A stretch of 44,984 nt of DNA. Source: Chloroflexota bacterium (GTDB lineage Bacteria; Chloroflexota; Anaerolineae; Anaerolineales; VGOW01). Location of the stretch: NCBI GenBank assembly GCA_016875735.1, contig VGOW01000029.1, positions 1-44,984 of the forward strand, read 5' to 3'. Below the pieces are notes generated by a model. The model did not search any database. It saw only the letters and a list, made by a program, of their open reading frames with translations, and had not been told where the DNA came from. This document shows, in pieces, positions 7,675 through 43,593 of this stretch. The first letter of the stretch is position 1, and each line of letters begins with the position of its first letter. The translations under genes and the position numbers were made by a program.

Positions 7675-7786
7675 TTGTCGTTTAAATCGTCGCCGATTCG
7701 CCCGTTTGGAATCTCAGCGGAGTCGCATACAATTGAGGGGAGACAGCCTGCCCTGTGGCCGCCGACGAGGCGGTTCACTCCGATCC

Positions 7787-23431: not shown

Positions 23432-23483
23432 TGCCGTGTCAAATCGCCACGCGCACCAACGATCCCTTTCCAATGGTTGGCCT

Positions 23484-27254: not shown

Positions 27255-29225
27255 ATGCCCAAAAAATTTCATCGCCTCGCTATTGCAATTGTATTTCTCT
27301 TCAGTCTTTTCGCCCTGCCTTTCGCTTCGCACGCGCAGAGCGGCAGCACGTTCTTCATCACCGGCGTCGATGCCAGCAACTTCCCCGATGTGCAGTTCAC
27401 CCTGCGCGCCGTTGACTTGAACAATCAGGCCATTGCCAACCTCAACAACAGCAATGTCTCGGTGTTCGAGAACGGCCAACTTGTCGAAGATATCGAAGTG
27501 ACGCCGCAGACCGGCGCTCCGGTCAATATTGTTTTTGTGATCGATCTGGGGCGGCTGGCGAATTATCAATCCTTCGGATTGAACAACATCCGCCTCGCCA
27601 TCTCAACTCTGGTGACGGGCGGTTACTTTGCCGATGGTATCGACACGGTGACGGTGCTGGGCCGCCAAAACATCGCCAGTGATCAGACTCTGGTGCTTCT
27701 GCCGCCCACGCACAGCGGCCTCGAGCTGACGAACTGGGCCGCCAACTCCAACTTCCAGCGCGGCAACGGCTCCACCAAAGGCCTGCTTGGGGTGGAAGAC
27801 GGCATGACCAAAATGGCCGAACTCGTGCCCACGCCGGGAACGCAGACGACCGCCCTCATTTTCATCACTCGCTATATCGAAGACCCCAGCAACACGGTGG
27901 CCGTGAGTTCGGCGCAGAACCTCGCCCTCACCGCCAAAGACAAGTTCATCACCATTCACACCTTCCAAACTGATCTCAGCAAATTCAACGCCCAGCCTCT
28001 GCAAGTGCTGGCCTCCGGCGCAACCGGCGTTTATGTTCCGCTGGATCGCAACACCATTGCCACCGCCACCGGCAACGTCTATCAATCCATCGCCGCGCAG
28101 CGCACGGTGTACACTGTGGCGTATCGGAGCCAGTTGGGAGAATCGGGGAAACGGCAGATCACAATCAACGCTCCGGAGCCGCCAGCCGTCGGGTTGACCG
28201 GCAGTTACGAAGTAACGGTGAAAGCGCCGACGGTGGAAATCGTCGCCCCCATTCCCGGCGACACTATCCGCCGTGAAGCGGCGCGCGGCGCAGACGGAAC
28301 GACGTTGACGTTCGATGTCAACACCGTCACCGTGCGCGCCGATGTGAGTTGGCCCGAAGGGACGAGCCCGCGCGCGATCCAATCGGCTGAGCTGTATGTG
28401 GGCGATGTGCTACAAGACAAAGTGTCGCCGCCGCCCGATGCCACGCAAGTCGAGTTCACGTGGGACATATCGGACATCGTCACCGAAGGACTGAACACCT
28501 CTCGCGTGGAAGTGCGGGTGACCGACGAGTTGAATGTCGAGGCGAGCGGCGATGCGACGGTGAATGTCGAAGTGATTCTGCCGCCGCCCCCGCCGCCTCC
28601 CGATCCCACACAAGAATTTCTGAAACAGTATGGCGCAATACTCGGCGTCGTCGTTTGCGTGGGGCTGGCGGGCGTAGTGCTGGTGGTCGGCGTTGTGGCA
28701 GTGGCGATGCGCCCCAAACAAGCCAAACAGCAAGCGGCGGCGGCCAGCGGCCCCGAGCCCATGGCCACACTCATCGGCGGCGCCCCCGTGAGAGAAAAGG
28801 GTCTGGCAACGCTGACGGTGTTGGAGGGCCCCAAAGGGGTCATCGGCGAAGAGTTCAACATTACCAAGAACATCACCATTTTGGGGCGCAACCCCAAATC
28901 GGCGCACATCGTGTTCTATCCCGGCGAAGAGAGTTCGGTGAGCCGCGTGCATTGCACCATCCAGCTCGACAACAATTCATTCATCATCACCGACAACAAC
29001 TCCAGCAGCGGCACGCGAATCAACGGCGAGTGGCTGAAGCCCAACGACCCGGTGCAGTTGCGCGACGGTGACGAGGTCATTTTGGGCGACTTGGCAAAGT
29101 TGGGCGTGAAGCTGCGCTTCAATTTGCAGGGAGGCCAAGAGCAGCCGCGCGGCTCGTCGAGCATCGACCGCACTTTCATCATCGGCGATTCGCAAGACGA
29201 CGATTGGCGGAAGTTTCAGGGGTGA
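27255..29225 (+). CDS. Secreted VWA-like - TM - cytosolic FHA receptor-like protein 2
   Basis: This 656-residue protein has the same plan as the product of 23484-25643. A signal peptide (MPKKFHRLAIAIVFLFSLFALPFASHAQS) is followed by an extracellular VWA-like domain (about 90-300), in which the MIDAS sequence is degenerate (VIDLGRL in place of DxSxS). Beta-sandwich segments run to about 450, then a poly-Pro spacer leads into a transmembrane helix at about 462-485 (AILGVVVCVGLAGVVLVVGV). The C-terminal FHA domain (about 540-625) has the full set of binding residues: ITILGRNPKS, SVSRVHCTIQL and NSSSGTRING. This FHA should bind phosphothreonine, unlike that of its partner. A PP2C phosphatase gene follows, and a kinase-like protein is encoded nearby, which fits a phosphorylation-reading role at the membrane. 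Confidence 0.85.
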   Translation: MPKKFHRLAIAIVFLFSLFALPFASHAQSGSTFFITGVDASNFPDVQFTLRAVDLNNQAIANLNNSNVSVFENGQLVEDIEVTPQTGAPVNIVFVIDLGRLANYQSFGLNNIRLAISTLVTGGYFADGIDTVTVLGRQNIASDQTLVLLPPTHSGLELTNWAANSNFQRGNGSTKGLLGVEDGMTKMAELVPTPGTQTTALIFITRYIEDPSNTVAVSSAQNLALTAKDKFITIHTFQTDLSKFNAQPLQVLASGATGVYVPLDRNTIATATGNVYQSIAAQRTVYTVAYRSQLGESGKRQITINAPEPPAVGLTGSYEVTVKAPTVEIVAPIPGDTIRREAARGADGTTLTFDVNTVTVRADVSWPEGTSPRAIQSAELYVGDVLQDKVSPPPDATQVEFTWDISDIVTEGLNTSRVEVRVTDELNVEASGDATVNVEVILPPPPPPPDPTQEFLKQYGAILGVVVCVGLAGVVLVVGVVAVAMRPKQAKQQAAAASGPEPMATLIGGAPVREKGLATLTVLEGPKGVIGEEFNITKNITILGRNPKSAHIVFYPGEESSVSRVHCTIQLDNNSFIITDNNSSSGTRINGEWLKPNDPVQLRDGDEVILGDLAKLGVKLRFNLQGGQEQPRGSSSIDRTFIIGDSQDDDWRKFQG

Positions 29226-29240
29226 CCCATCATCACGAAA

Positions 29241-29350
29241 GCGCCCTGAGCGAAGGCGGGTGCCGTTTTCGCCGCAGTCGAAGGGCGCGCATCAAAACCG
29301 CATCCTTCGACTTCGCGCCGAAAAGCATCGGCGCTTCGCTCAGGATGCTG
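29241..29350. repeat. Large imperfect palindromic element (CCTGAGCGAAG family)
   Basis: The left half has GCGCCCTGAGCGAAGGCG then CGCAGTCGAAGGGCGC. The right half, read on the other strand, has GCATCCTGAGCGAAGCGCC then CGCGAAGTCGAAGGATGC. The two halves form an interrupted 110-bp hairpin between the VWA-FHA 2 and PP2C genes. It also happens to be open as an N-terminal extension of the phosphatase. Confidence 0.7.
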
Positions 29351-29403
29351 AACGCCTAACCAACTACGAGACAGGCATCATCAACAACGCAGGAGCCGAC
29401 AGG

Positions 29404-31332
29404 ATGTCGCAAATATTGTTGGGGAGTGACAGCAACCCGGGCGGGCGAAAGTACAATGAGGATCGCTGCGCCACGACGAACATTGTCACCAGCGGTGGGC
29501 GCAAGCTGGCGGTGGCAGTGGTGTGCGACGGCGTGGGCGGCGAAGCGCGCGGGGAGCGCGCGGCTCAGCTCGCCATCGACACGTTCTTCAGCGCCATCCG
29601 GCGCAGTCTTGGCGACGACGACAAGATGGAAACGATCCGGCTGTTGGGCAACGCGCTCAAAGAAGCCAACTACGCCGTGTTCGCCGAAGCCACACGCCTC
29701 GATTTGGGCGAACGCATGGCCTGCACGATGGTAGCCGCCGCTGTCGAGAACGGCGAGCGCCTGTTTATCGCCAACGCCGGAGACAGCCGAATCTATCTCA
29801 GCCACAAAGGCAAACTGGCGCAACTCACTCGCGATCACACTTTTGCCAACGTGATGGTGTGGACGGGCAAGATGAGCGCCGAAGCCGCCGCCGCCAACCC
29901 CGACGCCAACCGGGTGATGCGCGTGCTCGGCATCAAAGATTCGATTCAAGTTGACAACGGCATTTACCTCGACACGACCGACTACGGCGCAGCCAACGAA
30001 CTCGGGCGCGACGGCATCCTCCTCGAACTGGGCGACTCGGTATTGCTCTGCACCGATGGGCTGATCAAGAAAACGTTTGCCACCAATCAGCGGCTGGTCA
30101 CCGACGAAGAAATCGTGCGCCTGCTGAACACGCAGGAAGGCGACAAAGCGGCGCGAAGCATCATGAGCATTGCGCTGGGGCGCATCCCCGTCGGCGAAGA
30201 GGTGGACAACATCACCCTCGCCATCCTGCAAACCGAAGACCCCTCGCGCTCACTCAATGAAGCGAACTTTCAACAGCAGGTCGTTCAAACCCATCAGCGC
30301 GATCAAGGCCGCCGCGCCATTTTGGTTGCGCTGGCCGTCGCCGTGCCCATGGGGTTTTTGCTCATCGTTGCGCTAGCCCTTCTTTTCTTCGGATACACGT
30401 TCTTCACCGGCATCACGGCGGGCACGGCCACCAGCCTCGCCCAAGCCACCGGTGTTGCGTTTGCCCAAACACAAACGGTGGCCGCCTTCACACCCACGCC
30501 GGAACCCACCAGCACCCTGCCCCCCACCGCCGTGCCAACCGCCGTGAGCGGCGAGATCGCCAAAGTGTTTCGCGGCGACAGCCAGCTCGATATTGTGACC
30601 GACGAGAAGCGGCAGCTGATCGTCGCCCCGCCGAGCGAAACGCGATACGTGGCCGTCACCTATCTGCGATACAACGCGCCGGAGATCACCGCCGATGGCA
30701 ACATCTATTTGCAGGGCAACACACAACTGCAATTCGAAGTCGTCACCGAGAAACTGATTCAACTCACACTGCTCACCGGAAGCGACATCGTCGTGCAGAC
30801 CGGCCCCTATTCTCGCGGGGCGGAAATCCGTCTCGCCAATTTGCCGGTGACGGTCGCCATTCGCGGATGCATGGGGCTGGCCTTCGTCACCGACAACAGT
30901 TTCACCGCCACTTGCTTCGATGGCGAGTGCGGCATCAGCACGCAGATCGGCGCAGAGTCTATTCACTTCGACAAAAGCACGCAGCTCCAAATCGAGATCG
31001 ACAAGCCCTCGCCGACCACCGGCTCGCCGATCCCATCGAACGATTTCGCCAAGTATTGGACTCTGCTTTCGCAAAACGGCGTGGGCAAAGAAGACATCAA
31101 AGCCTGCGGCATCACCAACGTTGCCGCGACACAGTCGGCGGCGGCCACCTTTCAGAGCAATGCCGCCAAAACCGCGCGCGCCGCCATCACGCCCACGCTC
31201 GAGGCCACGCCATTACCGGCGGCTGCCGATATTGCTACCACTGCCCCGCCCACCGACACGCTCCCCGCGCCCACGCTGGACGCAACCGCCGCTTGCGCCG
31301 CGTTGCAACTGGCGGGCACGCCCTGCCCGTAA
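29404..31332 (+). CDS. Transmembrane PP2C-type Ser/Thr phosphatase with extracellular domain
   Basis: The 642-residue protein begins with a cytosolic PP2C (PPM) phosphatase, about residues 1-280. Metal-binding motifs are NEDR (18-21), VCDGVGG (Asp42), ANAGDSRIYL, LLCTDG (about 216) and VDNIT (about 267). A transmembrane helix at about 303-333 follows, then a Thr/Pro-rich extracellular stalk and a beta-rich domain resembling FecR/cupin-like folds (LLTGSDIVVQTGPYSRG, VAIRGCMGLAFVTD). The tail is again Ala/Thr/Pro-rich. The start at 29404 is preferred because GGAG lies upstream and the earlier frame translates a palindromic repeat. It would reverse phosphorylation by PknB-type kinases and could tune FHA-dependent assembly of the adjacent secretion system. 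Confidence 0.9.
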   Translation: MSQILLGSDSNPGGRKYNEDRCATTNIVTSGGRKLAVAVVCDGVGGEARGERAAQLAIDTFFSAIRRSLGDDDKMETIRLLGNALKEANYAVFAEATRLDLGERMACTMVAAAVENGERLFIANAGDSRIYLSHKGKLAQLTRDHTFANVMVWTGKMSAEAAAANPDANRVMRVLGIKDSIQVDNGIYLDTTDYGAANELGRDGILLELGDSVLLCTDGLIKKTFATNQRLVTDEEIVRLLNTQEGDKAARSIMSIALGRIPVGEEVDNITLAILQTEDPSRSLNEANFQQQVVQTHQRDQGRRAILVALAVAVPMGFLLIVALALLFFGYTFFTGITAGTATSLAQATGVAFAQTQTVAAFTPTPEPTSTLPPTAVPTAVSGEIAKVFRGDSQLDIVTDEKRQLIVAPPSETRYVAVTYLRYNAPEITADGNIYLQGNTQLQFEVVTEKLIQLTLLTGSDIVVQTGPYSRGAEIRLANLPVTVAIRGCMGLAFVTDNSFTATCFDGECGISTQIGAESIHFDKSTQLQIEIDKPSPTTGSPIPSNDFAKYWTLLSQNGVGKEDIKACGITNVAATQSAAATFQSNAAKTARAAITPTLEATPLPAAADIATTAPPTDTLPAPTLDATAACAALQLAGTPCP

Positions 31333-31396: not shown

Positions 31397-32026
31397 TCAA
31401 CTGATGATGTAAAACGTCAGCGTCACCCGCCCCGCGCGGATGCGCGACCCGACCGGCAGGGGATACTTCATGCCCATCTTCAACCGCTGATCGCCGAGAT
31501 AGGTTGGGTTGTTGTCGGCGATGCTCTCGATGAAGAACGCGCCATCCTTCTCGGTGATGCAAGCGTGATGCCGCGAGACGGTCGGCGGGTCTTCCGCGTC
31601 TTCCAAATCCACCGCCAGCAATTTGTTGTTCGAGGGGTTGCGCCGATCCTTCCGCCCAATGATGGCCGGCTGCCAGCGAATGTCATATTGCGCCAACTGG
31701 CGCTCTTCCAAAACATACACTTGTTTGAACCCTTTGCTGAGGGTCACCCGCTCGCCCCGTTTGATGGCGTCCAACGTGCCGCTGGCCTCCACCACGCGAG
31801 CACACACCAGCACACTCCCGTCAGCCACGCCTTCTTGATCCAATGGCGCATCCACGTGCAATGGCTTTCGGTCGCCCTTCGTCAACAGCACAAAATTGCC
31901 GTCGAGGTTGTACTTGTCTTTGATCGAGGTGAGCAAGTTGCCGACGACGAGGCTGCTGCGCACGTTGGCTCGCTTGGGGCCGATTTGGTTGGGCAAAATT
32001 TCAATGGTGATGGTCATTCTGTCCAT
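31397..32026 (-). CDS. YukD/EsaB-like ubiquitin fold fused to an FHA domain
   Basis: This is a 209-residue cytosolic protein. Residues about 4-82 resemble the ubiquitin-like YukD/EsaB component of firmicute type VII systems (TITIEILPN, then a VGNLLTSIKDKYNL helix, then LDQEGVADGSVLVCARVVE). Residues about 110-209 are an FHA domain with AIIGRKDRRN, VSRHHACIT and NNPTYL. The start at 32026 has GGAGG upstream; Met4 is an alternative. It lies 19 nt downstream of the giant ATPase gene in the same operon, so it is probably a partner of that motor. The fusion would let a phosphothreonine signal recruit the ubiquitin-like component. EccD in actinobacteria also carries a ubiquitin-like domain. Confidence 0.83.
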   Translation of the reverse strand: MDRMTITIEILPNQIGPKRANVRSSLVVGNLLTSIKDKYNLDGNFVLLTKGDRKPLHVDAPLDQEGVADGSVLVCARVVEASGTLDAIKRGERVTLSKGFKQVYVLEERQLAQYDIRWQPAIIGRKDRRNPSNNKLLAVDLEDAEDPPTVSRHHACITEKDGAFFIESIADNNPTYLGDQRLKMGMKYPLPVGSRIRAGRVTLTFYIIS

Positions 32027-32045: not shown

Positions 32046-35000
32046 CTACTTCTTCTTGCCCTTCTTCGGCGCGGCCTCCGACTCGGCTTCCTTCTCTGCC
32101 GGTGTATCGCCGTTGTCGGGCGCTTCGATGGTCACACTGGCAAAGTTGGCCGGGTTGGCTTCGGCCACCTCCGCCATTTGCGCGGCCATGCCCGCCTGCA
32201 TGGCCATGAGTTTCTCCAACTCGGCCATCGCTTCATTGTGCGCCGCTGCGGCCTCTTGCACCGCCGCCGGAGCGGGAGCCGCCGCGCCTTCGCCCGCCGC
32301 CGCCGCGCCCTCGCCTTTGATCGCCGCATCGAGCGCGGCCAAATCTTTGGCGTGATAACTCCACCGCGCCTTCAGCGGATACCGCGCCCGGATGTCGCCG
32401 ATGAGGCCATCGAGTTGCTGTTCGGCCGAGAGGCCGTTCTTGCCTTCCACATACGGCGTGGCGATCTGCACCATCGAGGCAGTGACGGCTTTGATGAGGA
32501 AAGCGCGGCCCGGCGGCAGCTCTTTGTTCACCGAGAAACTGCCGCGCACGCCCATAAAGCGCACCGCCTCGAAATCGTTGAGCACCAGTGTGTACCGCGC
32601 CGACTCGGTTCGCTTGCGCAGTTCATCCATGCTGTTACGCATGATGTTCATCGAGCCGGAGATGACGAGGTGCATGTTCTTGCCCTTGCCCACCTCCGAG
32701 AGGCCCACGAGTCCCGCGCCGCCTTTGTTGAACGATTCGGCGTCGTCGTAGTGATCGATGATGACGAAGATCGATCTGGCCTGATTGTTCTGCGCCATGA
32801 ACACATCCGATTTCCCTTGCAAGCGCATGATCACTTCTTCATCGTATTCAGCGCGAAGCCGTTTCACCGTCTCGTCCATCTCTTTGGCGTTGGTCACGGT
32901 GGCCAAAACGTGCGGTAGTTTGTCGAGCGAGTTGTCGGCGCTGGCCCCGAAGTTGAAGAAGCGCCGCGACGAGTCCGATGGATCGACGAGCACCATCGCC
33001 ACTTTGTCGGGCGGGTAGCAATGCGCCAGCGCCAGCACGAGCGAACGCACGGTGGTCGTCTTGCCGGTGACGGGCGGCCCCAGCACCAGCCAGTGCGGGC
33101 CTTTGGCCCCGAACTCGATCATCGTCGGTTCGCGGTCGAGATCGTTGAGGCCCACCGGCACGGCTTTGTTGTCGATGCCCTGCCCCAGCGGCGGCAGAAC
33201 GCTGGCAACGTCGATGAACTTCGCCAGCGGCTCCACCGGCTTCGGGCGTTTGGTTCTCAGCGGCGGCGTCGCGCTTTCGAGCGCCGCCCACGCCCGCGAC
33301 ATACGGTTGGACAGTTCGCGGTAGTAATCGGTGTCGCCATCCCCAATGGGAATGGCGGTGTGGAATTCGAGCGGCTGAGGCCGTTCGTCCACCATTTCCA
33401 CCACCAGCCCGCGCCCGGGTTCGTCGTTGAACGGCACCCATCCGCGCCCGACGATGGTGCTGTAATCGGAAGCGTCGGGCAGGGTGAACGTGAGTCGCTG
33501 TGTGAGGAGATTGAACAGTTTGGTGGGAACGTCGTTGGTGAGTGTCGCCGTCACCACGAAGTACACGCCGAAGGATCGGCCATCGCGGACGAGAGCGATG
33601 AGATCGCCGAGATAGCGTTCGTAGGTTTCCTTGAATTCGGAGACGTTGTCCACCACGACGATGACCGGCGGGAAGGGCGAGTCGGGATTCTTGGCGTTGT
33701 AATCGGCCAGCGAGTCGAAGGCCTGAGTCTTCTGCTGGCGATCATCGATGATGGTGCGGATCATGCGGATGAGCCGCTCGACGCGCTCCTCTTCGCTCGT
33801 ATCCACAATACCTGCAACATGCGGCAGGTTGCGCAGGGCTTTGAGGCCGCCGCGCCCGAAGTCGAGGGCGAAGATGTGCAGATCGGCGGGCGAGCGCTGT
33901 GCGGCCAGCGCGATGAGCAGTGATTTGAGAAAGGTGGATTTGCCGCGCCCGCTCGCGCCGAAGATGACAATCGGATCGCCCGACGGGTCAATGTTGAGGA
34001 TGCGCTGTTCGGCGAGGAAGGTATTGTCCACAATGCCGATGGGCACGCCGAGGGCAACGGGCTTCGTCCAATCCTGCGCCTGCCACAGCGGCTTCGCATC
34101 GGCGTTATCGATCCACGCGGCCACCGTCGAGTTGATGATCGTCTCTTTGCCCAATCGCCCGTTTTGGATGTACTCGGAGTTGACCAACTTGTTGAGCGGC
34201 AGTTGTTCGGGCAGTGGATCGGGCCACGGCTTGAACTGCTTGGGGATTTTCTGCCGCCGGGACTCCGCCGCCAACACACCCACCAGCCAGCCGAGCAGTG
34301 AGCGCGGCGGATCGTTTTGCTTGTCGAGCGCTTCGAGAATCTCATCAATGGAATAAACGGGATCGGGCTTCGCTTCATCGTACGGCGCGCCCGACCACGC
34401 GGCTTGCACTTCCGAGAGGCCGCCGCCGCCTACCTGAATATAGCCGCGTCCGCCGATGGCCGGCAGTGTGGCGGCATCGGGGCGGCTGAGCATTTCTTTG
34501 CTGTCGTCCGCCGTTTCCACGCGCAAACAGATTCTGAACTTCATGTTGGCGCGCATCTGATCCGAGACGACGCCGGAGGGTCGCTGAGTGGCGAGGATGA
34601 GCGACACGCCGAATGAACGACCCAGCCGAGTGATGCTCTCGAACTTGGCTTTGTATTCGGGGTTCTGCGTAATCATCTCCGCAAACTCATCCACGATGAT
34701 GAAGAGATGCGGGAAGGTGTTGGGGAACGGCGAGCCGGGCTTGAGAGTCGGAATCACTTTCTTCCGATAGTCAACGAGATCGGCCACCCCAGCCTTGGCC
34801 AAAATATCCGACCGCCGATTCATCTCGGCGTTGATGGCAATGAAGATGCGTTCGACGGCGTTGCCCTGCAAGTTGGTGGCGATGTCCACGCAGTGCGGCA
34901 GTTTGCGGAACGGCTCGACTGTAGGGCCGCCTTTGTAATCCACCAGCACGAAGTTGATGATGCGCGGATCATATTTGATGGCGAGGGCGCTGATCAACGT

Positions 35001-38000
35001 TTGGATCAACTCCGACTTGCCGGAGCCGGTGGTGCCCGCCGCCATGCCGTGCACGCCGTCACCGCCCGCTTTGGCCGAGAAGATCATGTTGCGAATCTCT
35101 TTACTACTGATCAACCCGATGGGCGCGTTGAGCCATTCTTGATTTTCGGGCAGCATACTGCGCTGCCAGTTCTCGGCGATCTTGAGATCGCCGATACGGT
35201 CGATCTTGCGGCCCAAAATGATCTGATACATCTCCAGCAGGGTGATGGCGCGGGGGATTTCTGCCGAGGGGCGTTTGCCGCCCACCGCCGCCCACGCTTT
35301 ATCCATTCGTTCGGCGAGGCGCATGAACGGATCTTTCTCCGCACCCATCACCGGCACAGCCACATGAAATTCGAGCGGCTGGCCTTCGATGTTGACGAGG
35401 CCGCGCCCCGGCACGTTGGCGAGGCTGAGCGCCCCGCGCCCGACGATGTCAATGTAGGCCGTCGGGTCGGACATGGTGAAACTGTAACGCTGGGTGAGCA
35501 GGTTGTAGAGTTTGGCCGGGATGTCGTTAGTTTGGCTGGCGGTGAGGATGAAGTAGATTCCGAACTGCCGCCCGTCGCGGACGATGGTGAGCAGATCGGG
35601 CATGAGGTATTCGTAGTTTTCTTTGAACTCGGCGAAGTTGTCGATGGCGATGATCACGCACGGGAAGAGCACATCGGGGTTGTCTTTGTGCTGGGCGTTG
35701 TAATCTTCAAGCGAGGCGAAGCGGGCCAGTCGATCCTGCCGTTCGTTCATCAGCCCGCGCACGAGCCGGAAGAGAGCCTCCACACGGTCGGGCTGGCTGG
35801 CGTCAATCGTCGCGCCGCAGTGCGGCAGAAGACGCAAGGCTTTGAGGCCGCCGCGCCCGAAGTCGAGGGCATACATGTTGAGTTCCGAGGGCGGGCGTTG
35901 GGCGGCGAGGGCGAACAGCAATGATTTGATGAACGTGGTTTTGCCGCGCCCGCTCGCGCCGAAGGCGATGATGGGATCGGCGGCCAGATCGACGGTGAGC
36001 AATCGCTGGTTGGAGCGGAACGGATCATCCACGATGCCCATCGAGGCTTTGAGCGGAAGGGGATTGTCCCAATTCCACGGCTGCCACAGGCCGGAGGGCG
36101 CAACGGGGTTGGCGGCGTCCGTGCCGGCCCACGCGGCCAGCGCCGGGCTGATCACGACTCGATCTTCGGGTATCTCCGGCAGGTAACTCGCGTCCACCGG
36201 CTCGTTGATCGGCGTCCTCTCCAACATCGGATCCGGCCACGGCTTGAATTGTTTGGGGATGCCCTGCCGCTTGGCTTCGGCGGCCAACGCGCCCACGAGC
36301 CAGCCGAGCAGTGAGCGCGGCGGGTCGTTTTGCTTGTCGAGCGCCTGCAAAATTTCGTCGGCGGCGTACACCGGGTCGTTGACGGCAGAACCGTCGTACG
36401 GCGCGCCCGACCACGCCGCCTGCACTTCGGTGAGCAGATCGGTTCCCGCCTGCACGTAGCCGCGCCCGCCGATCTGCGGCAATCGCGCGGCGTCGGGGCG
36501 CTTGAGCAGTTCTTTGCTGTCCTCCGCCGTTTCCACGCGCAAACAGATTCTGAATTTCATGTTGGCCCGCATCTGATCGGTGACGACGCCCGATGGCCGC
36601 TGGGTGGCGAGAATGAGCGACACGCCGAACGAACGACCCAGCCGGGTGATGCTCTCGAACTTGCCTTTGTATTCGGGGTTCTGCGCGATCATCTCGCCGA
36701 ACTCATCGACGATGATGAAGAGGTGCGGGAAGGTGTTGGGGAACGGCGAACCGGGTTTGAGATCGGGGATGACTTTCTTCCGGTAGTCCACGAGATCGGC
36801 CACCCCGGCCTTGGCCAAAATGTCCGACCGCCGATTCATCTCGGCGTTGATGGCGATGAAGATGCGCTCGACGGCGTTGCCCTGCAAGTTGGTGGCGATG
36901 TCCACGCAGTGCGGTAGTTTGCGGAACGGCTCGACCGTGGGGCCGCCTTTGTAATCCACCAGCACAAAGTTGACGATGCGCGGATCGTATCGAATCGCCA
37001 TCGCGCTGATCAGAGTCTGGATCAACTCCGACTTGCCGGAGCCGGTGGTGCCCGCCGCCATGCCGTGCACGCCGTCGGCCTGCGCCTGAAAGACCATCGT
37101 GCGAATTTCTTTGCTACTCACGAGGCCGATCGCGCCGCGCAGCCATTCCTGATTCTTCGCCACCATGCTGTGCTTCCACTTTTCGGCGATGCCGAGATCG
37201 CCGATGACGGTGACGGGCTTGCCGTCGATGAGCGCGAACATATCGAGCAGGGTGAGCGCGCGCGGCAGTTCCGCCGAGGGGCGTTTGCCGCCCATCGCCA
37301 GCCACACCTTCTCCATTCGCTGAGCGATCTCTTGATACGGATCGAGTTTGTCGGCGTCGCCCGGTTCATCGGGCCCGCCGGGAGCGGCCACCTGAAATTC
37401 GAGCGGCACCGGCTTGTCTTTCACGGCGATAGCGATGAGGCCGCGTCCCGGAACGTTATCAAAGTTCGGCGCGCCCGAGCCGACGATGTCGCTGTAAAAC
37501 ATTCGGTCGGGCATGGTGAGGGTGAGCCGCTGGGTGAGCAAGTTGTACAGCTTGCCGGTGAGGTCGTTGGTGTTGCTGGCCGTGATCACAAAATACACGC
37601 CGAAGGCGCGCCCATCGCGGATGAGCGCCATGAGTTCGGGGATGAGATGCTCGTAGCTTTCTTTGAATTCGGCGAAGTTGTCGATGACCACGACGATGTC
37701 GGCGAAGGCCGTCGTGGGATTCTTGGCGTTGTAGTCGGCGAGGTTGATGTATTTGGCGAGTCGTTCCTGCCGCTCATTGACGAAGTTGCGCAGCATGCGC
37801 ATCATCTGATCCACCCGCGCCGTCTCCGAAGCGTCGATGGAGGCGCCGAGATGCGGCAGGGCTTTGACGGTCTTCAAGCCGCCGCGCCCGAAGTCGAGAG
37901 CGTACATGTGCAGTTCGTTCGGCGAGCGCGAAGCGGCTAACGAGATGAGCAGTGTTTTGATGAAGGTGGTTTTGCCGCGCCCCGCCGCCCCGAAGAGCAC

Positions 38001-40760
38001 CACCGGATCGGTAGAGAGATCGATGGTAAGCAAGCGTTGCTCGGCGAGATACGGGTTATCCACAATGCCGATGTCGGCGCGGAGAGGCGGCGGCGCTTTC
38101 CAATCCATCGGCTGCCACAACGACTTCTCTTCGGTGTTATTCAGCCACGCATCAATGCGCTGATCGATCACGATCTTTTTATCAACGATAGTGCGCTCGG
38201 TGTTGAGGTATTCGGCGTCCACCGGCTCGTTGAGAGGAAGGTGTTCGGGCAGGGGATCGGGCCACGGCTTCTTTTGCGGGGGGACGCCGTCTCGTTTGGC
38301 GCGAAGGGCGGCGATACCCACTATCCAATCCACCAACGTGCCGGGCTTCTCGCCGGGCTTCATGCCCAACGCTTCGGCCACTTCCAGCGCAGAATAGGCG
38401 GGCTGGTCTTGCCCATCCTTGCCGCTCATTTGCGCCTCGTCGTCGAGCCAGATCACATCGCGCAGAACTTCGGTGCGATCATCGCTGTAATCGCCTCCAG
38501 CGCGGGCAATCTGCGCACCCTGCAAAATATCGTTGCCCACTTGGATGTAGCCGCGCCCGCCGATGTTGGGCAGGAAGGCGGCGTCGGGGCGGCCCAACAA
38601 TTCTTTGCTGTCGTCGGGCGTTTCCACGCGCAGGCAGATGCGGAACTTCATATTGGCGCGCATCTGATCGGTGACGACGCCCGCCGGGCGCTGAGTGGCC
38701 AGAATCAAGGTGACGCCGAAGGCGCGGCCCAACCGGGTGACGCTCTCGAACTTCGATTTGTAATCGGGGTTGGCGGTGATCATTTCCGCAAACTCGTCCA
38801 CGATGATGAACAAGTGCGGAAAGGTTTTGGGCAGAGTCTCGTCGCGGGCGTACGGCGCTTTCTGCCGATACTCGACGAGGTCTTTCATGCCGCTGCGGGC
38901 GAGCAAGGCGCTGCGCTCGTCCATCACCGCTTGAATGGCGACAAACATGCGCTCGACGGCGTTGGCCTGCAAGTTGGTGAGAATATCGACGACGTGCGGG
39001 AGTCGGCGGAAGGGCTCGAAGGCCGCGCCGCCTTTGAAATCGACCAGCACAAAATTGACGATGCGCGGATCGTATTTGAGCGCCATCTCGGCGATGAGGG
39101 TAAGCAGTAATTCCGATTTGCCGGAACCGGTCGTTCCGGCGATCATGCCGTGCACGCCGTCGCCGCCCTCTTTGGCCGAGAAGATCAGATTGCGCACATC
39201 CTTCACGCTGATCATGCCGATGGGAGCGTTGAGCCATTCGGAGTTGCGCGGCACCATGCTCCGCTCCCAGTTTTCTTTGAAGGTAAGCTTGTCCACCGTC
39301 GCCACGCGCCGCCCGTCGATCACCGATTGCATTTGCAGAAGGTCAACCGAGCGCGGCAGGTCGGCGCCGAACGCGCGGCGCAGATCGAGCCGCCGGATGC
39401 GGGCGGCGAACTTTTGGCGCGCGTCGGCGGCGCTCATGGTGTCGGCGTCGCCGAGGTAGCGGGGGGTGTTGAGTCCGACTTCGGTGTATCGGAAGGCGAC
39501 TTTCTCGCCGACCGAAGCCACTTCCATCATTGCCACACAGTCGCTGGGAATCTTGGCCGGATCATTGGCGAGGAAAATGATGGCCGCGCCCAGTGTGGGG
39601 CCGGATTGGTTGATGGTGTGGACGACGGCTTCGGAGGCGACTTCCGCGAGGGAGGAGTTCGGCGGAGTCTCACCGAGCAGATCGACAACGACGAGCATGA
39701 ACGGCAAAGTCACATCGCCGATATTCTTTTTCTCATCGTCATCCGAATCGCGCAGTTTCACCTGCCGCGTGTCGAGTTCGCGTTTGATGCGCTTCCAAAA
39801 CGCGGTGACTTTGTCTTTCCCCGGCACGAAGCACAGTTGATCGTATTGCTTGGGTTTGGTGGCGTCGTCATCGTCGTCGCCCACGCCGCGCACGTTGCAG
39901 TGCGGCAGCCACTCGCACCACGTCCAATTGCTTTTGCCGTGCGGGTGGCCGATGACGTACAGGCGCGTATCGATGGCAGAATGGAAACAGCAGAAGTGGG
40001 CGAGCAACGCGCGGGCCACGTCGGCGGTGTGGGTGGGGTTCTTGCCAAAGATGCCGATGGTGTGGCGCGCGGGAATGGATTTGTTGCCCGGTTTATTTTC
40101 GTCACTCGAAGAGCTGCCTTGGGATTCCTCTTTGACGAACGGGCGAAGAGGGATGGTGATGGAGACGTCGGTGAGCAAGAGGGAGTCGGAGGCCAACTTG
40201 CGAGCATCTTTCCACAACGGCCCTTCGTCGAGCGGATTCCCCTGCCCGCCCAATTTGTAGATCACGGTGGATGGGCGGGCGCCGACGCCCAATCGAACTG
40301 CGCCGAAGTCACTATCGGTGGAGCGGCGCTCCCACAGCCGTGACCCGAACCGGCTCTTTTCTTTGCGGTCGGCGATCTCCAGCGCCGTATTCGCGTCGGG
40401 ATAATTGTGCTGGTAAAAGATGCGCTGGGTGTTGTGCGTGCGCACCATGTCTTGGCGCATGGCGGCCAGCATTTCTTGATACGCCTTTTGCTTCGCCAGA
40501 AACTCTTTCCGCTCGCGGCCGCTCTGAAAAATCGAGACGCCGATGGAGACGAACATCGCCAGCGCCATAGGGAGCATAAACATGAGACTGCCGCTGCCCG
40601 AAGCAAAGACGAAGCCGATGATGGTGATGAGCGGAATGAGCAGGGTGACGATCCCTTGATCACCGCCTTTGGATTGCTCGGGCGGGCTGGGGATTTCGAT
40701 TTCGGCAATCGGCAGTTCCGGTTGGACTCGCGGCGGGCGATCTATGTATTCGACAGCCAT
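32046..40760 (-). CDS. eccC: Giant EccC/EssC-type FtsK/SpoIIIE ATPase with seven P-loops
   Basis: This is a 2904-residue membrane-anchored motor of a type VII-like secretion system. Two transmembrane helices lie at about 36-80 (GIVTLLIPLITIIGFVF and MFMLPMALAMFVSIGV). Walker A motifs fall at about residues 543 (GTTGSGKSE), 927 (GAAGRGKTT), 1238 (GTTGSGKSE), 1603 (GASGRGKTT), 1910 (GTTGSGKSE), 2268 (GASGRGKST) and 2563 (GPPVTGKTT). The GTTGSGKSE copies pair with LFIIVDEF Walker B and LILATQRP. The others have IDNF, VDNV or IDHY in place of DE. Three ATPase domains therefore look active and four degenerate, whereas ordinary EccC/EssC has three or four in about 1300-1500 residues. The C-terminus is an Ala/Glu-rich helix and Lys tail. 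RBS GGAGAG precedes the ATG. Co-transcribed with the Ubl-FHA gene. Confidence 0.93.
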   Translation of the reverse strand: MAVEYIDRPPRVQPELPIAEIEIPSPPEQSKGGDQGIVTLLIPLITIIGFVFASGSGSLMFMLPMALAMFVSIGVSIFQSGRERKEFLAKQKAYQEMLAAMRQDMVRTHNTQRIFYQHNYPDANTALEIADRKEKSRFGSRLWERRSTDSDFGAVRLGVGARPSTVIYKLGGQGNPLDEGPLWKDARKLASDSLLLTDVSITIPLRPFVKEESQGSSSSDENKPGNKSIPARHTIGIFGKNPTHTADVARALLAHFCCFHSAIDTRLYVIGHPHGKSNWTWCEWLPHCNVRGVGDDDDDATKPKQYDQLCFVPGKDKVTAFWKRIKRELDTRQVKLRDSDDDEKKNIGDVTLPFMLVVVDLLGETPPNSSLAEVASEAVVHTINQSGPTLGAAIIFLANDPAKIPSDCVAMMEVASVGEKVAFRYTEVGLNTPRYLGDADTMSAADARQKFAARIRRLDLRRAFGADLPRSVDLLQMQSVIDGRRVATVDKLTFKENWERSMVPRNSEWLNAPIGMISVKDVRNLIFSAKEGGDGVHGMIAGTTGSGKSELLLTLIAEMALKYDPRIVNFVLVDFKGGAAFEPFRRLPHVVDILTNLQANAVERMFVAIQAVMDERSALLARSGMKDLVEYRQKAPYARDETLPKTFPHLFIIVDEFAEMITANPDYKSKFESVTRLGRAFGVTLILATQRPAGVVTDQMRANMKFRICLRVETPDDSKELLGRPDAAFLPNIGGRGYIQVGNDILQGAQIARAGGDYSDDRTEVLRDVIWLDDEAQMSGKDGQDQPAYSALEVAEALGMKPGEKPGTLVDWIVGIAALRAKRDGVPPQKKPWPDPLPEHLPLNEPVDAEYLNTERTIVDKKIVIDQRIDAWLNNTEEKSLWQPMDWKAPPPLRADIGIVDNPYLAEQRLLTIDLSTDPVVLFGAAGRGKTTFIKTLLISLAASRSPNELHMYALDFGRGGLKTVKALPHLGASIDASETARVDQMMRMLRNFVNERQERLAKYINLADYNAKNPTTAFADIVVVIDNFAEFKESYEHLIPELMALIRDGRAFGVYFVITASNTNDLTGKLYNLLTQRLTLTMPDRMFYSDIVGSGAPNFDNVPGRGLIAIAVKDKPVPLEFQVAAPGGPDEPGDADKLDPYQEIAQRMEKVWLAMGGKRPSAELPRALTLLDMFALIDGKPVTVIGDLGIAEKWKHSMVAKNQEWLRGAIGLVSSKEIRTMVFQAQADGVHGMAAGTTGSGKSELIQTLISAMAIRYDPRIVNFVLVDYKGGPTVEPFRKLPHCVDIATNLQGNAVERIFIAINAEMNRRSDILAKAGVADLVDYRKKVIPDLKPGSPFPNTFPHLFIIVDEFGEMIAQNPEYKGKFESITRLGRSFGVSLILATQRPSGVVTDQMRANMKFRICLRVETAEDSKELLKRPDAARLPQIGGRGYVQAGTDLLTEVQAAWSGAPYDGSAVNDPVYAADEILQALDKQNDPPRSLLGWLVGALAAEAKRQGIPKQFKPWPDPMLERTPINEPVDASYLPEIPEDRVVISPALAAWAGTDAANPVAPSGLWQPWNWDNPLPLKASMGIVDDPFRSNQRLLTVDLAADPIIAFGASGRGKTTFIKSLLFALAAQRPPSELNMYALDFGRGGLKALRLLPHCGATIDASQPDRVEALFRLVRGLMNERQDRLARFASLEDYNAQHKDNPDVLFPCVIIAIDNFAEFKENYEYLMPDLLTIVRDGRQFGIYFILTASQTNDIPAKLYNLLTQRYSFTMSDPTAYIDIVGRGALSLANVPGRGLVNIEGQPLEFHVAVPVMGAEKDPFMRLAERMDKAWAAVGGKRPSAEIPRAITLLEMYQIILGRKIDRIGDLKIAENWQRSMLPENQEWLNAPIGLISSKEIRNMIFSAKAGGDGVHGMAAGTTGSGKSELIQTLISALAIKYDPRIINFVLVDYKGGPTVEPFRKLPHCVDIATNLQGNAVERIFIAINAEMNRRSDILAKAGVADLVDYRKKVIPTLKPGSPFPNTFPHLFIIVDEFAEMITQNPEYKAKFESITRLGRSFGVSLILATQRPSGVVSDQMRANMKFRICLRVETADDSKEMLSRPDAATLPAIGGRGYIQVGGGGLSEVQAAWSGAPYDEAKPDPVYSIDEILEALDKQNDPPRSLLGWLVGVLAAESRRQKIPKQFKPWPDPLPEQLPLNKLVNSEYIQNGRLGKETIINSTVAAWIDNADAKPLWQAQDWTKPVALGVPIGIVDNTFLAEQRILNIDPSGDPIVIFGASGRGKSTFLKSLLIALAAQRSPADLHIFALDFGRGGLKALRNLPHVAGIVDTSEEERVERLIRMIRTIIDDRQQKTQAFDSLADYNAKNPDSPFPPVIVVVDNVSEFKETYERYLGDLIALVRDGRSFGVYFVVTATLTNDVPTKLFNLLTQRLTFTLPDASDYSTIVGRGWVPFNDEPGRGLVVEMVDERPQPLEFHTAIPIGDGDTDYYRELSNRMSRAWAALESATPPLRTKRPKPVEPLAKFIDVASVLPPLGQGIDNKAVPVGLNDLDREPTMIEFGAKGPHWLVLGPPVTGKTTTVRSLVLALAHCYPPDKVAMVLVDPSDSSRRFFNFGASADNSLDKLPHVLATVTNAKEMDETVKRLRAEYDEEVIMRLQGKSDVFMAQNNQARSIFVIIDHYDDAESFNKGGAGLVGLSEVGKGKNMHLVISGSMNIMRNSMDELRKRTESARYTLVLNDFEAVRFMGVRGSFSVNKELPPGRAFLIKAVTASMVQIATPYVEGKNGLSAEQQLDGLIGDIRARYPLKARWSYHAKDLAALDAAIKGEGAAAAGEGAAAPAPAAVQEAAAAHNEAMAELEKLMAMQAGMAAQMAEVAEANPANFASVTIEAPDNGDTPAEKEAESEAAPKKGKKK
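33280..39356 (-). repeat. Three tandem ~2-kb coding repeats inside the giant ATPase
   Basis: Unit 1 spans about 37264-39356, unit 2 about 35253-37264 and unit 3 about 33280-35253; limits are approximate. Each encodes a linker (LLxMxxxIxG...), a catalytic-type FtsK domain with GTTGSGKSE and a degenerate domain with GRGK. Units 2 and 3 are the closest, sharing stretches such as PFRKLPHCVDIATNLQGNAV identically. A single extra P-loop domain follows unit 3. Confidence 0.85.
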
Positions 40761-40860: not shown

Positions 40861-40904
40861 AGGCGCAATCTATTCTCTCACAAGTCAAACCAAATTGCAT
40901 AGCC

Positions 40905-40976
40905 CATTTGGCTTATCGCCAAATGTGGACTGAAACTCTAAAATGCGCAAGTGCGGATGCGCGCCTCGCTGGCGCG
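40905..40976 (+). promoter_or_regulatory. Structured 5' leader of the pseudokinase gene
   Basis: Two small perfect hairpins lie in the predicted leader: CATTTGGC-TTATC-GCCAAATG at 40905-40925 and CGCGCC-TCGCT-GGCGCG at 40960-40976. Neither has a T-run. A role in translational control is only a possibility. Confidence 0.4.
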
Positions 40977-41004
40977 AACGCCCAACAACAAAGGCTGACA
41001 CCTC

Positions 41005-42135
41005 ATGAATAGATTCTGCGAACGATGCGAGCGGGTCACGAACGACGGCAACCTGTGGTGCGAGCGGGTAGACTGCCCGGCGGAGGAAGGGTTTCCCGTC
41101 CTCGTTTACGGCGAATATCTCGGCGACCTCAAAGTCCTCAAGTTGCTGAGAGTGTGGCGCACCGCCGCGCTGTATGAAGCGCAACGCGGCAAAGAGACTG
41201 TGCTGCTGAAAGTGGCGCATAAAGGCGATGATTGCGAAGAGCGGTTGAAGCGGGAGGCCATCGCCCTCGACTCCCTCGCCGACAAACCTTTCGGCCCCGT
41301 CGCCTTCATTCGATCCTTCGTGCCGACTCCGCGCCCCATGCTCCCGGCGCCGCTTCCGCCTTACCCGGTGCCCTCCAAACGACCGTACGGCGAAATCTCC
41401 TTTCGCGGCGAAACGAAATTCTACAGCGTGTTCCAACATGCTCAGGGAAAATTCCTCAGCGACCTCATGCTGGAGAACCCGCAGATATGGCACTACCAAG
41501 CGGCGTGGATCATCACCGCCGTTGCCGACTCTCTGCGACCGCTTGTAGCCCAGAACAAAAGCCACCTCTGCCTCTCGCCCGACATGATTCTGGTGGACAC
41601 CGACTCCGAGGGACACCTGCGGCCCCTCCTGCTCGATCTGGGTTTCATCGTCGGCGACAACGAAATCGAGAGCATTTACAACTGGGCCAAATTGTGCGAG
41701 CCGGCCTACACCGCGCCCGAACTGCTCAATGCCAAACGGCCCAAAAGCGTCAACACCTCCGCCGACGTTTTCTCGCTGGGCGCAATTCTGTTCGAGATGC
41801 TGGCTGGCAAGGCGGCGTTCGAGTCGAAACTTCAGCGCGACGATCAGATCCGCGAAATCGTCACACAGCATCGCGGCTCACTGCCCGTCGAACGGCCAGA
41901 GCTGGAGCACGCCGGGGTAGTGAAAATCGTCGAGCAGGCCATTGCCCCCAGCGGGCGATACCGCAACGTGACCGAACTGGCGAACGCATTGGCCGCCGTG
42001 TATTCTCGCCCTCCCGCCGAGAAGCGCCCCGTGCCCCGGCGTTTGTATGTGCTAATCGTCATCTTCGGTATCGTTTTGTTAGCCGTGCTCGGTATCGGCG
42101 CCTACATTCTCATTCAAGTTTTGTTGCGGCAGTGA
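41005..42135 (+). CDS. Zinc-ribbon pseudokinase with C-terminal membrane anchor (EssB-like plan)
   Basis: The 376-residue protein has an N-terminal four-cysteine zinc ribbon (Cys5, Cys8, Cys19, Cys24) and a protein-kinase fold at about 35-330. A single transmembrane helix sits at about 348-372 (LYVLIVIFGIVLLAVLGIGAYILI). The VLLK lysine (Lys69) and the APE-like APELL are kept, as is the SADVFSLGAILFEMLAGK helix. The catalytic loop HRDxKxxN reads H187-L-C-L-S-P-D-M, so the catalytic Asp, Lys and Asn are all lost, and DFG is DLG (Asp211). It is therefore a pseudokinase. EssB/YukC of type VIIb secretion systems is also a pseudokinase with one transmembrane helix, which makes this a plausible functional counterpart. 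It is transcribed divergently from the giant ATPase. Confidence 0.87.
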   Translation: MNRFCERCERVTNDGNLWCERVDCPAEEGFPVLVYGEYLGDLKVLKLLRVWRTAALYEAQRGKETVLLKVAHKGDDCEERLKREAIALDSLADKPFGPVAFIRSFVPTPRPMLPAPLPPYPVPSKRPYGEISFRGETKFYSVFQHAQGKFLSDLMLENPQIWHYQAAWIITAVADSLRPLVAQNKSHLCLSPDMILVDTDSEGHLRPLLLDLGFIVGDNEIESIYNWAKLCEPAYTAPELLNAKRPKSVNTSADVFSLGAILFEMLAGKAAFESKLQRDDQIREIVTQHRGSLPVERPELEHAGVVKIVEQAIAPSGRYRNVTELANALAAVYSRPPAEKRPVPRRLYVLIVIFGIVLLAVLGIGAYILIQVLLRQ

Positions 42136-42197: not shown

Positions 42198-42512
42198 TTA
42201 TCGGCGCACACCTTCGCCGAAGTACCGCTTGCCCTGAATGTCGCCCCTCTTGTGATCGTTGATCGCCTGTCCGAGGTCGGAGGCGAACTCATCGCAGAGT
42301 TTAGCCAGCTTTTCCACCTTCTGCTTGATGACCTCGAGGTATTGGATGAGAGCCGGGGCCATGAAGTTACCCAGCATGGCGCTCACTCTCAAGATGCCGA
42401 TCAGCACTTCCAACACCTTGCCCACCGTCCGCAAAGTATCCCTCGCCGTAGCAAACCCTTTGGACACGTCGCTGATGACGGCATAATCCATTTGCACAAC
42501 TTGTCCGGCCAT
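42198..42512 (-). CDS. Small WXG100-like helical protein 4
   Basis: A 104-residue, mostly helical protein (MAGQVVQMDYAVISDVSKGF...). It has two predicted helices separated by a hydrophobic turn, GNFMAPALIQYLE, where the WXG motif would be. It ends in a charged tail (INDHKRGDIQGKRYFGEGVRR). AGGAGG lies about 10 nt upstream of the ATG. The size, the helical-hairpin plan and its place as the last of four adjacent small genes suggest an ESAT-6-like partner of the secretion system, but the WXG motif itself is absent, so the assignment is weaker than for its neighbours. Confidence 0.72.
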   Translation of the reverse strand: MAGQVVQMDYAVISDVSKGFATARDTLRTVGKVLEVLIGILRVSAMLGNFMAPALIQYLEVIKQKVEKLAKLCDEFASDLGQAINDHKRGDIQGKRYFGEGVRR

Positions 42513-42569
42513 AGGTCAGATCCTCCTAATCCTAATAGTAATGAACCCGTTCGCGCGTGAGGCGTCCGG

Positions 42570-42884
42570 CTAGATGCCGCCGAACAAATCACCGAGCGAC
42601 TGGGCTTGCTGCGTGCATTGGTTGTCGGCCTGATCGATGATGCCTGTGGCCTTCGTCAGGTTCAGGTTGATGCCGGCGATGGCGGCGATCAGTTCCAACA
42701 TGGCCGGAACGATTTTGCGGGCGACGTCGGAGGCGAACTCATCGGCGTCGCCGCCGATCCACGAGCCTTGCACTTTGGGCACATAGCCCTTGATCGTGTC
42801 GAGCACGCCAGAAACGATCTGCTGTTGCTGGCCCACGCCGCTCATCACGTTATCCACTTGGGAGCGAATGAATTGAAATAACAT
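42570..42884 (-). CDS. WXG100-family protein 3
   Basis: A 104-residue helical-hairpin protein with the motif GSWIGGDADEFASDV at about 41-55, matching the WxG turn of the WXG100 family. Helix 1 contains QVDNVMSGVGQQQQIVSGVLDTI and helix 2 ARKIVPAMLELIAAIAGINLN. GAGGAG precedes the ATG. Family members leave the cell folded, often as dimers, through EccC/EssC motors. A single Cys near residue 88 is unusual. It is encoded 20 nt downstream of the next WXG-type gene. Confidence 0.85.
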   Translation of the reverse strand: MLFQFIRSQVDNVMSGVGQQQQIVSGVLDTIKGYVPKVQGSWIGGDADEFASDVARKIVPAMLELIAAIAGINLNLTKATGIIDQADNQCTQQAQSLGDLFGGI

Positions 42885-42904
42885 AGTTCGATCTCCTCGT
42901 CAGT

Positions 42905-43198
42905 TTATTTGAAGCGGCTCTGAGCAGTCGAAACGCCGTCGCGAGTGGCAATGATCGCACCGTTAATGTCGCGCTCCAATTCCTGCATCTTTTCGCCGAG
43001 CGCCTTCAGCCGTTTGGCAAGTTTGCTGCGAATGGCTTCGCGGAATGCGTCTCCGGCATAGCCGAGCAGAGCGCCGTCTTCCATCAACTTAGCCACTTTT
43101 TCCATCTCGCGCGACGTCTCATCGATCTGCTGGTGGGCCTGATGGAACGTCTTCTGCATCTGTTCCATCGAGTTGTAGTTCATTCTTACATCAGGCAT
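42905..43198 (-). CDS. WXG100-like protein 2 (YAG in place of WXG)
   Basis: A 97-residue helical hairpin. Helix 1 is MEQMQKTFHQAHQQIDETSREMEKVAKLM, written here in the order seen in the gene, and helix 2 runs from GDAFREAIRSKLAKRLKALGEKMQELERDI in two heptad-rich blocks. The turn is LLGYAGDAF, so Tyr-Ala-Gly replaces Trp-x-Gly, a known kind of variation. GGAGG lies 7 nt before the ATG. It probably heterodimerises with one of the other small proteins, as EsxA does with EsxB. Confidence 0.83.
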   Translation of the reverse strand: MPDVRMNYNSMEQMQKTFHQAHQQIDETSREMEKVAKLMEDGALLGYAGDAFREAIRSKLAKRLKALGEKMQELERDINGAIIATRDGVSTAQSRFK

Positions 43199-43235
43199 GA
43201 TAGACCTCCGGTTTGCGATTTGAGAATATCAACGA

Positions 43236-43538
43236 CTACACCTTGAAGACGCCGCCGGCTTCGTTTTCCGCATTCTGGAAGAGCCGGGAAATCTGGGCCG
43301 TGACACGAGCCGCCTCCGCCAGAGCTTTTTGCAGGCGCAGCAGCGAGGGCATCACTTGCTCATCCATCTCGCTGTAGAACTTCCGCGCACCCTCGCCGAT
43401 CCAGTCCCCGCCTTTCAGCGTTTCCATGCGTGAGCGGATGTTTTGGTTCATCCGCGAGATCGCATCGGCCTGCTGACTGAACGTGTTCTGAATAGTCTGG
43501 AGTTGGTCGTGGTCACTTCGGACTGTTGGTGCTGACAT
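43236..43538 (-). CDS. WXG100-family protein 1 (100 residues)
   Basis: This is a 100-residue protein starting at ATG 43538 (MSAPTVRSDHDQLQTIQNTF), with AGGAAAGG upstream; ten more codons upstream are open but not conserved. The turn GGDWIGEGARKFYSEM carries the WXG motif at about residues 45-47. The sequence closely matches the N-terminal 100 residues of the 421-residue protein encoded at 25672-26937, so one was derived from the other or both bind the same partner. It is the first gene of a four-gene run of small secreted-type proteins that ends at a bidirectional terminator. Confidence 0.9.
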   Translation of the reverse strand: MSAPTVRSDHDQLQTIQNTFSQQADAISRMNQNIRSRMETLKGGDWIGEGARKFYSEMDEQVMPSLLRLQKALAEAARVTAQISRLFQNAENEAGGVFKV

Positions 43539-43593
43539 AGAACCTTTCCTTTCTTTTGAGATTGTCAATCCCTTTGGGGTAGATTACGCTGTC

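What the first reader, a model, noticed from the sequence alone, without database searches (positions are those of the whole stretch)
32046..40760. A type VII-like secretion motor with an internally triplicated ATPase module (seven P-loops)
The 2904-residue protein contains seven Walker A motifs arranged as three copies of an active-type plus degenerate-type pair, then one more degenerate domain. Characterised EccC/EssC motors have three or four domains, of which one is the main engine. Here three LFIIVDEF-type engines sit in one chain. If the motor forms a ring, two chains could supply six catalytic sites, or the three engines could bind different WXG partners. Seen: motifs and repeat order. 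Known: EccC/EssC architecture. Inferred: altered stoichiometry.
Basis: partly seen in the sequence, partly recalled or inferred. Interest (0 to 1): 0.85.

Follow-up and report, generated by a model that had tools for sequence, protein, structure and literature searches.

The report
Type VII secretion motor, engine triplicated
A bacterial protein-export motor of the type VII family carries its ATP-burning engine three times in one chain instead of once; the same three-fold layout is found in about 30 Chloroflexota genomes, including the finished genome of the cultured predator Herpetosiphon aurantiacus, so it is a real machine variant that could be used to test how such motors assemble.

Summary
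Window 32046-40760 (minus strand) encodes a 2904-aa EssC/EccC-type T7SS ATPase: two TM helices, a D0-like region, then D1-D2 three times and one D3, giving seven intact Walker A motifs. It is not an assembly artefact: 30 complete proteins from separate Chloroflexota genomes (at least three classes, including closed Herpetosiphon aurantiacus) have exactly D1-D2-D1-D2-D1-D2-D3; none has two or four modules. All three D1 engines keep Walker A Lys/Ser, arginine finger and Walker B Asp-Glu in 30/30. The triple proteins form two clades whose copies are not orthologous position by position (AU p=1.4e-7), suggesting two triplications, though one origin with later homogenisation is not excluded. The locus is a conserved T7SSb-like set: four WXG100 genes, a membrane pseudokinase, the motor, and a YukD-like-FHA fusion. 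Single-module loci have the same four WXG100 genes, so engine number does not follow WXG100 number. New variant of a known kind; no description was found in the open literature searched.

The parts
32046..40760 (-). Triplicated EssC/EccC-type T7SS ATPase, 2904 aa
   Evidence: ORF and translation; PF01580 x7; TIGR03928/TIGR03924/TIGR03925 above cut-off
40530..40655 (-). Two predicted TM helices (residues 36-54 and 59-77)
   Evidence: hydropathy
39411..40253 (-). D0/DUF-like region, approx. residues 170-450 (limits inferred)
   Evidence: TIGR03924 match spans 22-747; the WTWCEWLPH segment aligns with EccC/YukB upstream of D1
38469..39317 (-). D1a, residues 482-764; K548, R604 finger, D655-E656
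37392..38156 (-). D2a, residues 869-1123; K930, R988, D1027-N1028
36378..37226 (-). D1b, residues 1179-1461; K1243, R1299, D1352-E1353
35364..36122 (-). D2b, residues 1547-1799; K1607, R1665, D1707-N1708
34362..35213 (-). D1c, residues 1850-2133; K1915, R1971, D2024-E2025
33360..34124 (-). D2c, residues 2213-2467; K2274, R2332, D2371-N2372
32487..33245 (-). D3, residues 2506-2758; Walker A GPPVTGKT, Walker B D-H
31397..32026 (-). 209-aa protein: N-terminal YukD-like ubiquitin-like domain (sub-threshold) fused to FHA; conserved directly downstream of the motor
   Evidence: FHA PF00498; YukD below cut-off in 6 of 9 family members at the same place; conserved neighbour
41005..42135 (+). 376-aa Cys-rich (zinc-ribbon-like) + kinase-fold protein with C-terminal TM; HRD Asp absent, so probable pseudokinase (EssB/YukC-like in layout)
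   Evidence: Pkinase; alignment A4; TM 347-365; codon-position GC supports + strand; PknB-like profile hits
42198..42512 (-). WXG100-like protein 1 of 4 (104 aa)
   Evidence: iterative profile
42570..42884 (-). WXG100 protein 2 of 4 (104 aa)
   Evidence: TIGR03930/PF06013 below cut-off; profile
42905..43198 (-). WXG100 protein 3 of 4 (97 aa)
43236..43568 (-). WXG100 protein 4 of 4 (110 aa)
   Evidence: PF06013 above cut-off
25672..26937 (+). 421-aa protein with N-terminal WXG100 domain, probable secreted substrate
   Evidence: PF06013, TIGR03930 above cut-off
23436..25643 (+). VWA-TM-FHA protein, recurrent neighbour
27255..29225 (+). TM + FHA protein (656 aa)
29260..31332 (+). PP2C phosphatase with TM (690 aa)

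Best explanation
It is the central membrane ATPase (EssC/EccC) of a Chloroflexota type VII secretion system in which the unit linker-D1-linker-D2 has been tandemly triplicated between a single TM/D0 head and a single D3 tail. Most likely six chains assemble as in other EssC/EccC motors, so that the extra modules lengthen the cytosolic motor: stacked rings D1-D2-D1-D2-D1-D2-D3 below the membrane, with three rings able to hydrolyse ATP in series on the same WXG100-tagged substrates. Shown: order, intact catalytic residues in all three D1 copies, conservation in 30 proteins, conserved T7SSb-like gene set. Inferred: hexamer of chains, stacking, serial action, substrates.
For: Architecture and family. 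All D1 copies keep K, S, arginine finger (56 residues after the Lys, as K678/R734 of S. aureus EssC in PMC9436818), D and E in 30/30 proteins: each D1 both offers and needs a neighbouring D1. In EssC, D1 and D2 are proposed to form two stacked rings (PMC9436818) and EssC to be a hexamer with six TM2 helices lining the pore (PMC10765036). AF2 model D1a-D2a-D1b (pLDDT 86.5, pTM 0.70) superposes on EccC 4nh0 D1-D2-D3 over 825 residues, Z 38.1, rmsd 7.0, equal to control D1c-D2c-D3 (816 residues, Z 38.0, rmsd 6.8): the next engine takes the place D3 takes in ordinary EccC. Single-module relatives use the same neighbours (four WXG100, pseudokinase, Ubl-FHA), so the membrane base is probably built to the same count.
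Against: No oligomer was modelled or measured. AF2 may reproduce the crystal pose of 4nh0 because that entry was in its training data, and 7 A rmsd leaves hinge freedom. Strict fixation at three modules, perhaps reached twice, is not explained by a stack, which would tolerate two or four.
Confidence: 0.5

Rival explanations
1. Ring in cis: the three D1 modules of one chain lie side by side, and two chains close a pseudo-hexameric D1 ring and a D2 ring.
For: Module number is exactly three in 30 of 30 complete multi-module proteins, never two or four, and position-by-position orthology between the two clades is rejected, compatible with two arrivals at three; three divides six. Each D1 keeps both halves of the composite site. 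From own knowledge, not found in the library: engineered covalent FtsK trimers are functional.
Against: Predicted D1a-D2a-D1b is a bead string with D1b in the D3 position. Only two TM pairs, two D0 and two D3 per ring would remain, although relatives use six to line the pore and the single-module loci have the same partner genes.
Confidence: 0.22
2. Beads without extra working rings: two of the modules are mainly spacers, regulators or docking platforms (for WXG100 proteins, pseudokinase, Ubl-FHA), and only one D1 ring works at a time.
For: D2c of clade B has lost the arginine finger (22 of 23) while D2a and D2b keep it, so copies do specialise; in S. aureus EssC, D2 Walker motifs are needed for assembly of the membrane complex (PMC9436818).
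Against: All catalytic residues of all three D1 copies are invariant in 30 proteins; a spacer would be free to lose them. Single-module loci have the same WXG100 cassette, so more docking sites are not required by it.
Confidence: 0.18
3. On history only: one ancient triplication followed by homogenisation of copies inside each lineage, with later collapse to one module in G008, G268 and G183, instead of two separate triplications.
For: Monophyly of all triple-protein modules is not rejected on the module tree (AU p 0.26); D1b and D1c of the window protein show raised third-position identity, a sign of exchange between copies.
Against: Single-module G008 groups with clade B on modules (SH-aLRT 95) and on flanks (100/98); monophyly is weakly rejected on flanking sequence (p 0.025); 'a' copies of both clades as one group are rejected (p 1.4e-7); it needs extra losses.
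Confidence: 0.3
4. Assembly or annotation artefact.
For: The window is a contig of a 150-contig draft assembly.
Against: Same layout in 30 complete ORFs from separate genomes, one on a contig of exactly the length of the finished H. aurantiacus chromosome; copies are only 62-85% identical in DNA.
Confidence: 0.01

Closest known systems
EssC (YukB) of T7SSb, Bacillota; TIGR03928
   Same: Two TM helices, D0, FtsK/SpoIIIE D1-D2-D3, D1 with K/R-finger/DE; neighbours resembling WXG100 (EsxA), pseudokinase with TM (EssB/YukC) and YukD
   Different: D1-D2 present three times (2904 aa instead of ~1300-1500); no N-terminal FHA domains, an FHA is found instead in a separate downstream protein fused to a YukD-like domain; no YukC (PF10140) detected
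EccC of T7SSa, Actinomycetota (4nh0, T. curvata; EccC5)
   Same: TM-D0-D1-D2-D3 order; structure prediction superposes on 4nh0 over three domains
   Different: Module triplication; four WXG100 genes rather than an EsxA/EsxB pair; EccB search gave nothing but its control was silent too
T7SSc-T7SSj subtypes (PMC11217815)
   Same: Phylum-specific re-arrangements of the T7SS around EccC/EssC and WXG100
   Different: Those are described for Bacillota and Actinomycetota only; the text does not mention Chloroflexota, and no module duplication was seen in the passages searched

Membership tests
EssC/EccC T7SS ATPase | Sequence match to curated EssC/EccC models | tested here: met
   TIGR03928 1554 bits (cut-off 778), TIGR03924 1045 (509), TIGR03925 834 (347)
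EssC/EccC T7SS ATPase | Two N-terminal TM helices | tested here: met
   residues 36-54 and 59-77
EssC/EccC T7SS ATPase | D1 with Walker A, Walker B DE and arginine finger | tested here: met
   three copies, 30/30 proteins
EssC/EccC T7SS ATPase | Exactly one D1, one D2, one D3 (as in all described members) | tested here: not met
   three D1, three D2, one D3; therefore filed as a variant
EssC/EccC T7SS ATPase | WXG100 genes alongside | tested here: met
   four small WXG100 genes next to the motor
EssC/EccC T7SS ATPase | Exports WXG100 proteins | not testable with these tools
   needs experiment
T7SSb | EssC with two N-terminal FHA domains | tested here: not met
   first TM begins at residue 36, leaving no room for N-terminal FHA domains; FHA is on the separate 209-aa protein
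T7SSb | YukC/EssB pseudokinase | tested here: inconclusive
   PF10140 absent in 10 genomes, control rang in B. subtilis; a pseudokinase with TM is present but matches Pkinase/PknB, not YukC
T7SSb | YukD/EsaB ubiquitin-like protein | tested here: inconclusive
   below cut-off but at the same place in 6 of 9 Ubl-FHA proteins; none above cut-off in 10 genomes
T7SSb | EsaA (YueB) and EssA | not tested
   not searched
T7SSa | EccB | tested here: inconclusive
   PF05108 found nowhere, control set silent too
T7SSa | EccD, EccE, MycP | not tested
   not searched

The most novel reading that the evidence does not exclude
A covalently concatenated T7SS motor: two chains, each with three engines, close a six-site ring in cis, and the number three has been fixed (possibly twice) because it completes a hexamer. 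This would be a natural counterpart of engineered linked-subunit hexamers and would change the accepted chain count of a T7SS.
Probability: 0.22. Interest if true: 0.9.

Novelty: new variant of a known kind. Interest (0 to 1): 0.7.

Why it matters
How EccC/EssC rings assemble and how many engines work at once is unsettled: the cytosolic domains are flexible beyond D0 in known complexes (PMC10765036). A natural motor with three engines per chain, kept at exactly three with all catalytic residues, gives a direct test of stacked versus in-cis rings by counting chains and knocking out engines one at a time. It also places a distinct T7SS gene set (four WXG100, pseudokinase, Ubl-FHA fusion) in Chloroflexota, a phylum for which published surveys mention only a few WXG100 sequences, and in a cultured wolf-pack predator in which such a system could deliver antibacterial proteins.

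Tried and rejected
Assembly artefact: rejected. One-to-one match of engines with WXG100 partners: rejected, four WXG100 genes occur beside single-module motors too (single-module L081 shows none in the stretch fetched). A 328-aa minus-strand ORF at 40885-41871: dropped, codon-position GC and homology show the real gene is 41005-42135 plus strand. Viral contigs gave only FtsK-like short matches. Plasmid records: ordinary EssC/EccC or FtsK-domain proteins in the rows listed. The notebook line that two triplications are established was softened. No paper on covalent FtsK trimers was found.

Full report
OBSERVATION. The 2904-aa ORF lies at 32046-40760 on the minus strand. Pfam FtsK_SpoIIIE matches in seven stretches and three curated T7SS models are exceeded roughly two-fold: EssC TIGR03928 1554 bits against 778, EccCa 1045 against 509, EccCb 834 against 347. 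Self-comparison gives D1 copies 61-83% and D2 copies 51-57% identical, D1 against D2 23-30%; profile segmentation gives D1-D2-D1-D2-D1-D2-D3. DNA repeats are spaced 2.0-2.1 kb at 62-85% identity. The TM pair is at residues 36-77.

NOT AN ARTEFACT, AND FIXED AT THREE. Searches of relatives, an own-class sample, a phylum sample and the 158 genomes held for the class of G381 found the same layout widely. Of all complete multi-module ORFs collected, 30 have exactly three modules; none has two or four; fragments that run off contigs agree. G381 contig 1 is 6,346,587 bp, the published chromosome length of Herpetosiphon aurantiacus 114-95T (PMC3368417), so the phylum is Chloroflexota and one copy lies in a finished genome of a cultured predator. 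G317 belongs to neither the window's class nor that of G381, so at least three classes are involved. Some genomes also hold shorter, ordinary EccC proteins (G013 1229 aa; G353 and G338).

CATALYTIC RESIDUES. In all three D1 copies of all 30 proteins the Walker A Lys and Ser, the arginine-finger Arg and the Walker B Asp-Glu are invariant. The finger was placed by spacing: SaEssC K678-R734 in D1 is 56 residues apart and D2 R1020-R1078 is 58 (PMC9436818); P0001 has K548-R604, K1243-R1299, K1915-R1971 (56) and K930-R988, K1607-R1665, K2274-R2332 (58). D2 has Asp-Asn at Walker B. In clade B, D2c has lost the finger in 22 of 23, whereas D2a and D2b nearly always keep it (22 and 21 of 23): copies specialise, but never by losing a D1 engine.

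HISTORY. Module trees give six clean groups, copies a, b, c of clade A and a, b, c of clade B, each with shape (a,(b,c)); all A copies group (SH-aLRT 100) and all B copies group (99) with the single-module G008 next to B (95). The tree of the parts that were not duplicated (N-terminus plus D3) agrees. Holding the 'a' copies of both clades together is rejected (AU p 1.4e-7). Holding all triple modules together is not rejected on modules (p 0.26) and weakly rejected on flanks (p 0.025). So two triplications are favoured, but one triplication with homogenisation is open. Within clades, the same copy in different species is more alike (mean 0.65-0.71) than different copies in one protein (0.54-0.64), so copies are old; D1b and D1c of the window protein show raised third-position identity, a sign of some exchange.

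NEIGHBOURHOOD. A conserved set surrounds the motor: four small WXG100 genes, a kinase-fold membrane protein, the motor, a ~209-aa FHA protein, and WXG100-domain proteins of roughly 300-450 aa. The kinase-fold protein (window 41005-42135 plus) has four invariant Cys at its N-terminus, keeps the Lys and D-x-G but lacks the HRD Asp in all 11 members aligned, and ends in a TM helix: a probable pseudokinase, the layout of EssB/YukC, whose pseudokinase domain binds EssC FHA domains in T7SSb (PMC9436818). The FHA protein carries an N-terminal segment that hits YukD below cut-off in 6 of 9 members at the same place. No YukC, and no YukD above cut-off, was found in ten genomes, with B. subtilis as working control. 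This looks like a T7SSb-like set in which EssC's FHA has moved to a separate YukD-like-FHA protein (inference). Single-module loci L080 and L082 have the same four WXG100 genes, which speaks against one engine per WXG partner.

STRUCTURE. AF2 of D1a-D2a-D1b (pLDDT 86.5, pTM 0.70) and the control D1c-D2c-D3 (85.5, 0.72) both align across three domains with EccC 4nh0: 825 residues Z 38.1 and 816 residues Z 38.0. D1b thus takes the D3 place. This fits a lengthened chain of beads and, with the published stacked-ring proposal for D1 and D2 of EssC, a taller stack. It does not exclude rearrangement on assembly, and 4nh0 (2015) was probably in AF2's training data.

JUDGEMENT. Known kind (EssC/EccC), new variant (module triplication, fixed at three, perhaps twice). 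[quoted passage not shown] one paper notes WXG100-calpain fusions in H. aurantiacus (PMC4631099). The library holds open-licence papers only, so a description elsewhere cannot be excluded. Survey outside Chloroflexota was shallow.

Noticed in passing
window 41005-42135 (+) and homologues L135:6013-7116, L140:4805-5905: Cys-rich N-terminus plus kinase fold without HRD Asp plus C-terminal TM, conserved beside the motor; candidate EssB/YukC counterpart in Chloroflexota not recognised by PF10140.
   Followed up: partly
window 31397-32026 (-): Fusion of a YukD-like ubiquitin-like domain with FHA; conserved in both triple- and single-module loci.
   Followed up: partly
window 42198-43568 (-): Cassette of four different WXG100 genes in a row beside most motors of this group, including single-module ones.
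   Followed up: partly
clade B proteins, D2c (e.g. L135 motor): Arginine finger of D2c replaced (Asp, Ser, Glu, Ala, Asn) in 22 of 23 while D2a/D2b keep it.
   Followed up: partly
G381 and G353 genomes: 17-19 WXG100-domain matches per Herpetosiphon genome, many in frames of 340-525 aa: a large set of probable secreted proteins in a predator.
   Followed up: no
window 9264-12362 (+) and 7669-9087 (+): 1032-aa Ser/Thr kinase with an AAA_16 match and a CHAT-domain protein upstream, outside the conserved set.
   Followed up: no
window 25672-26937 (+): WXG100-domain protein with a long Gly/Ser-rich repeat and a repeated LALPPNASGIQP motif in its C-terminal half.
   Followed up: no
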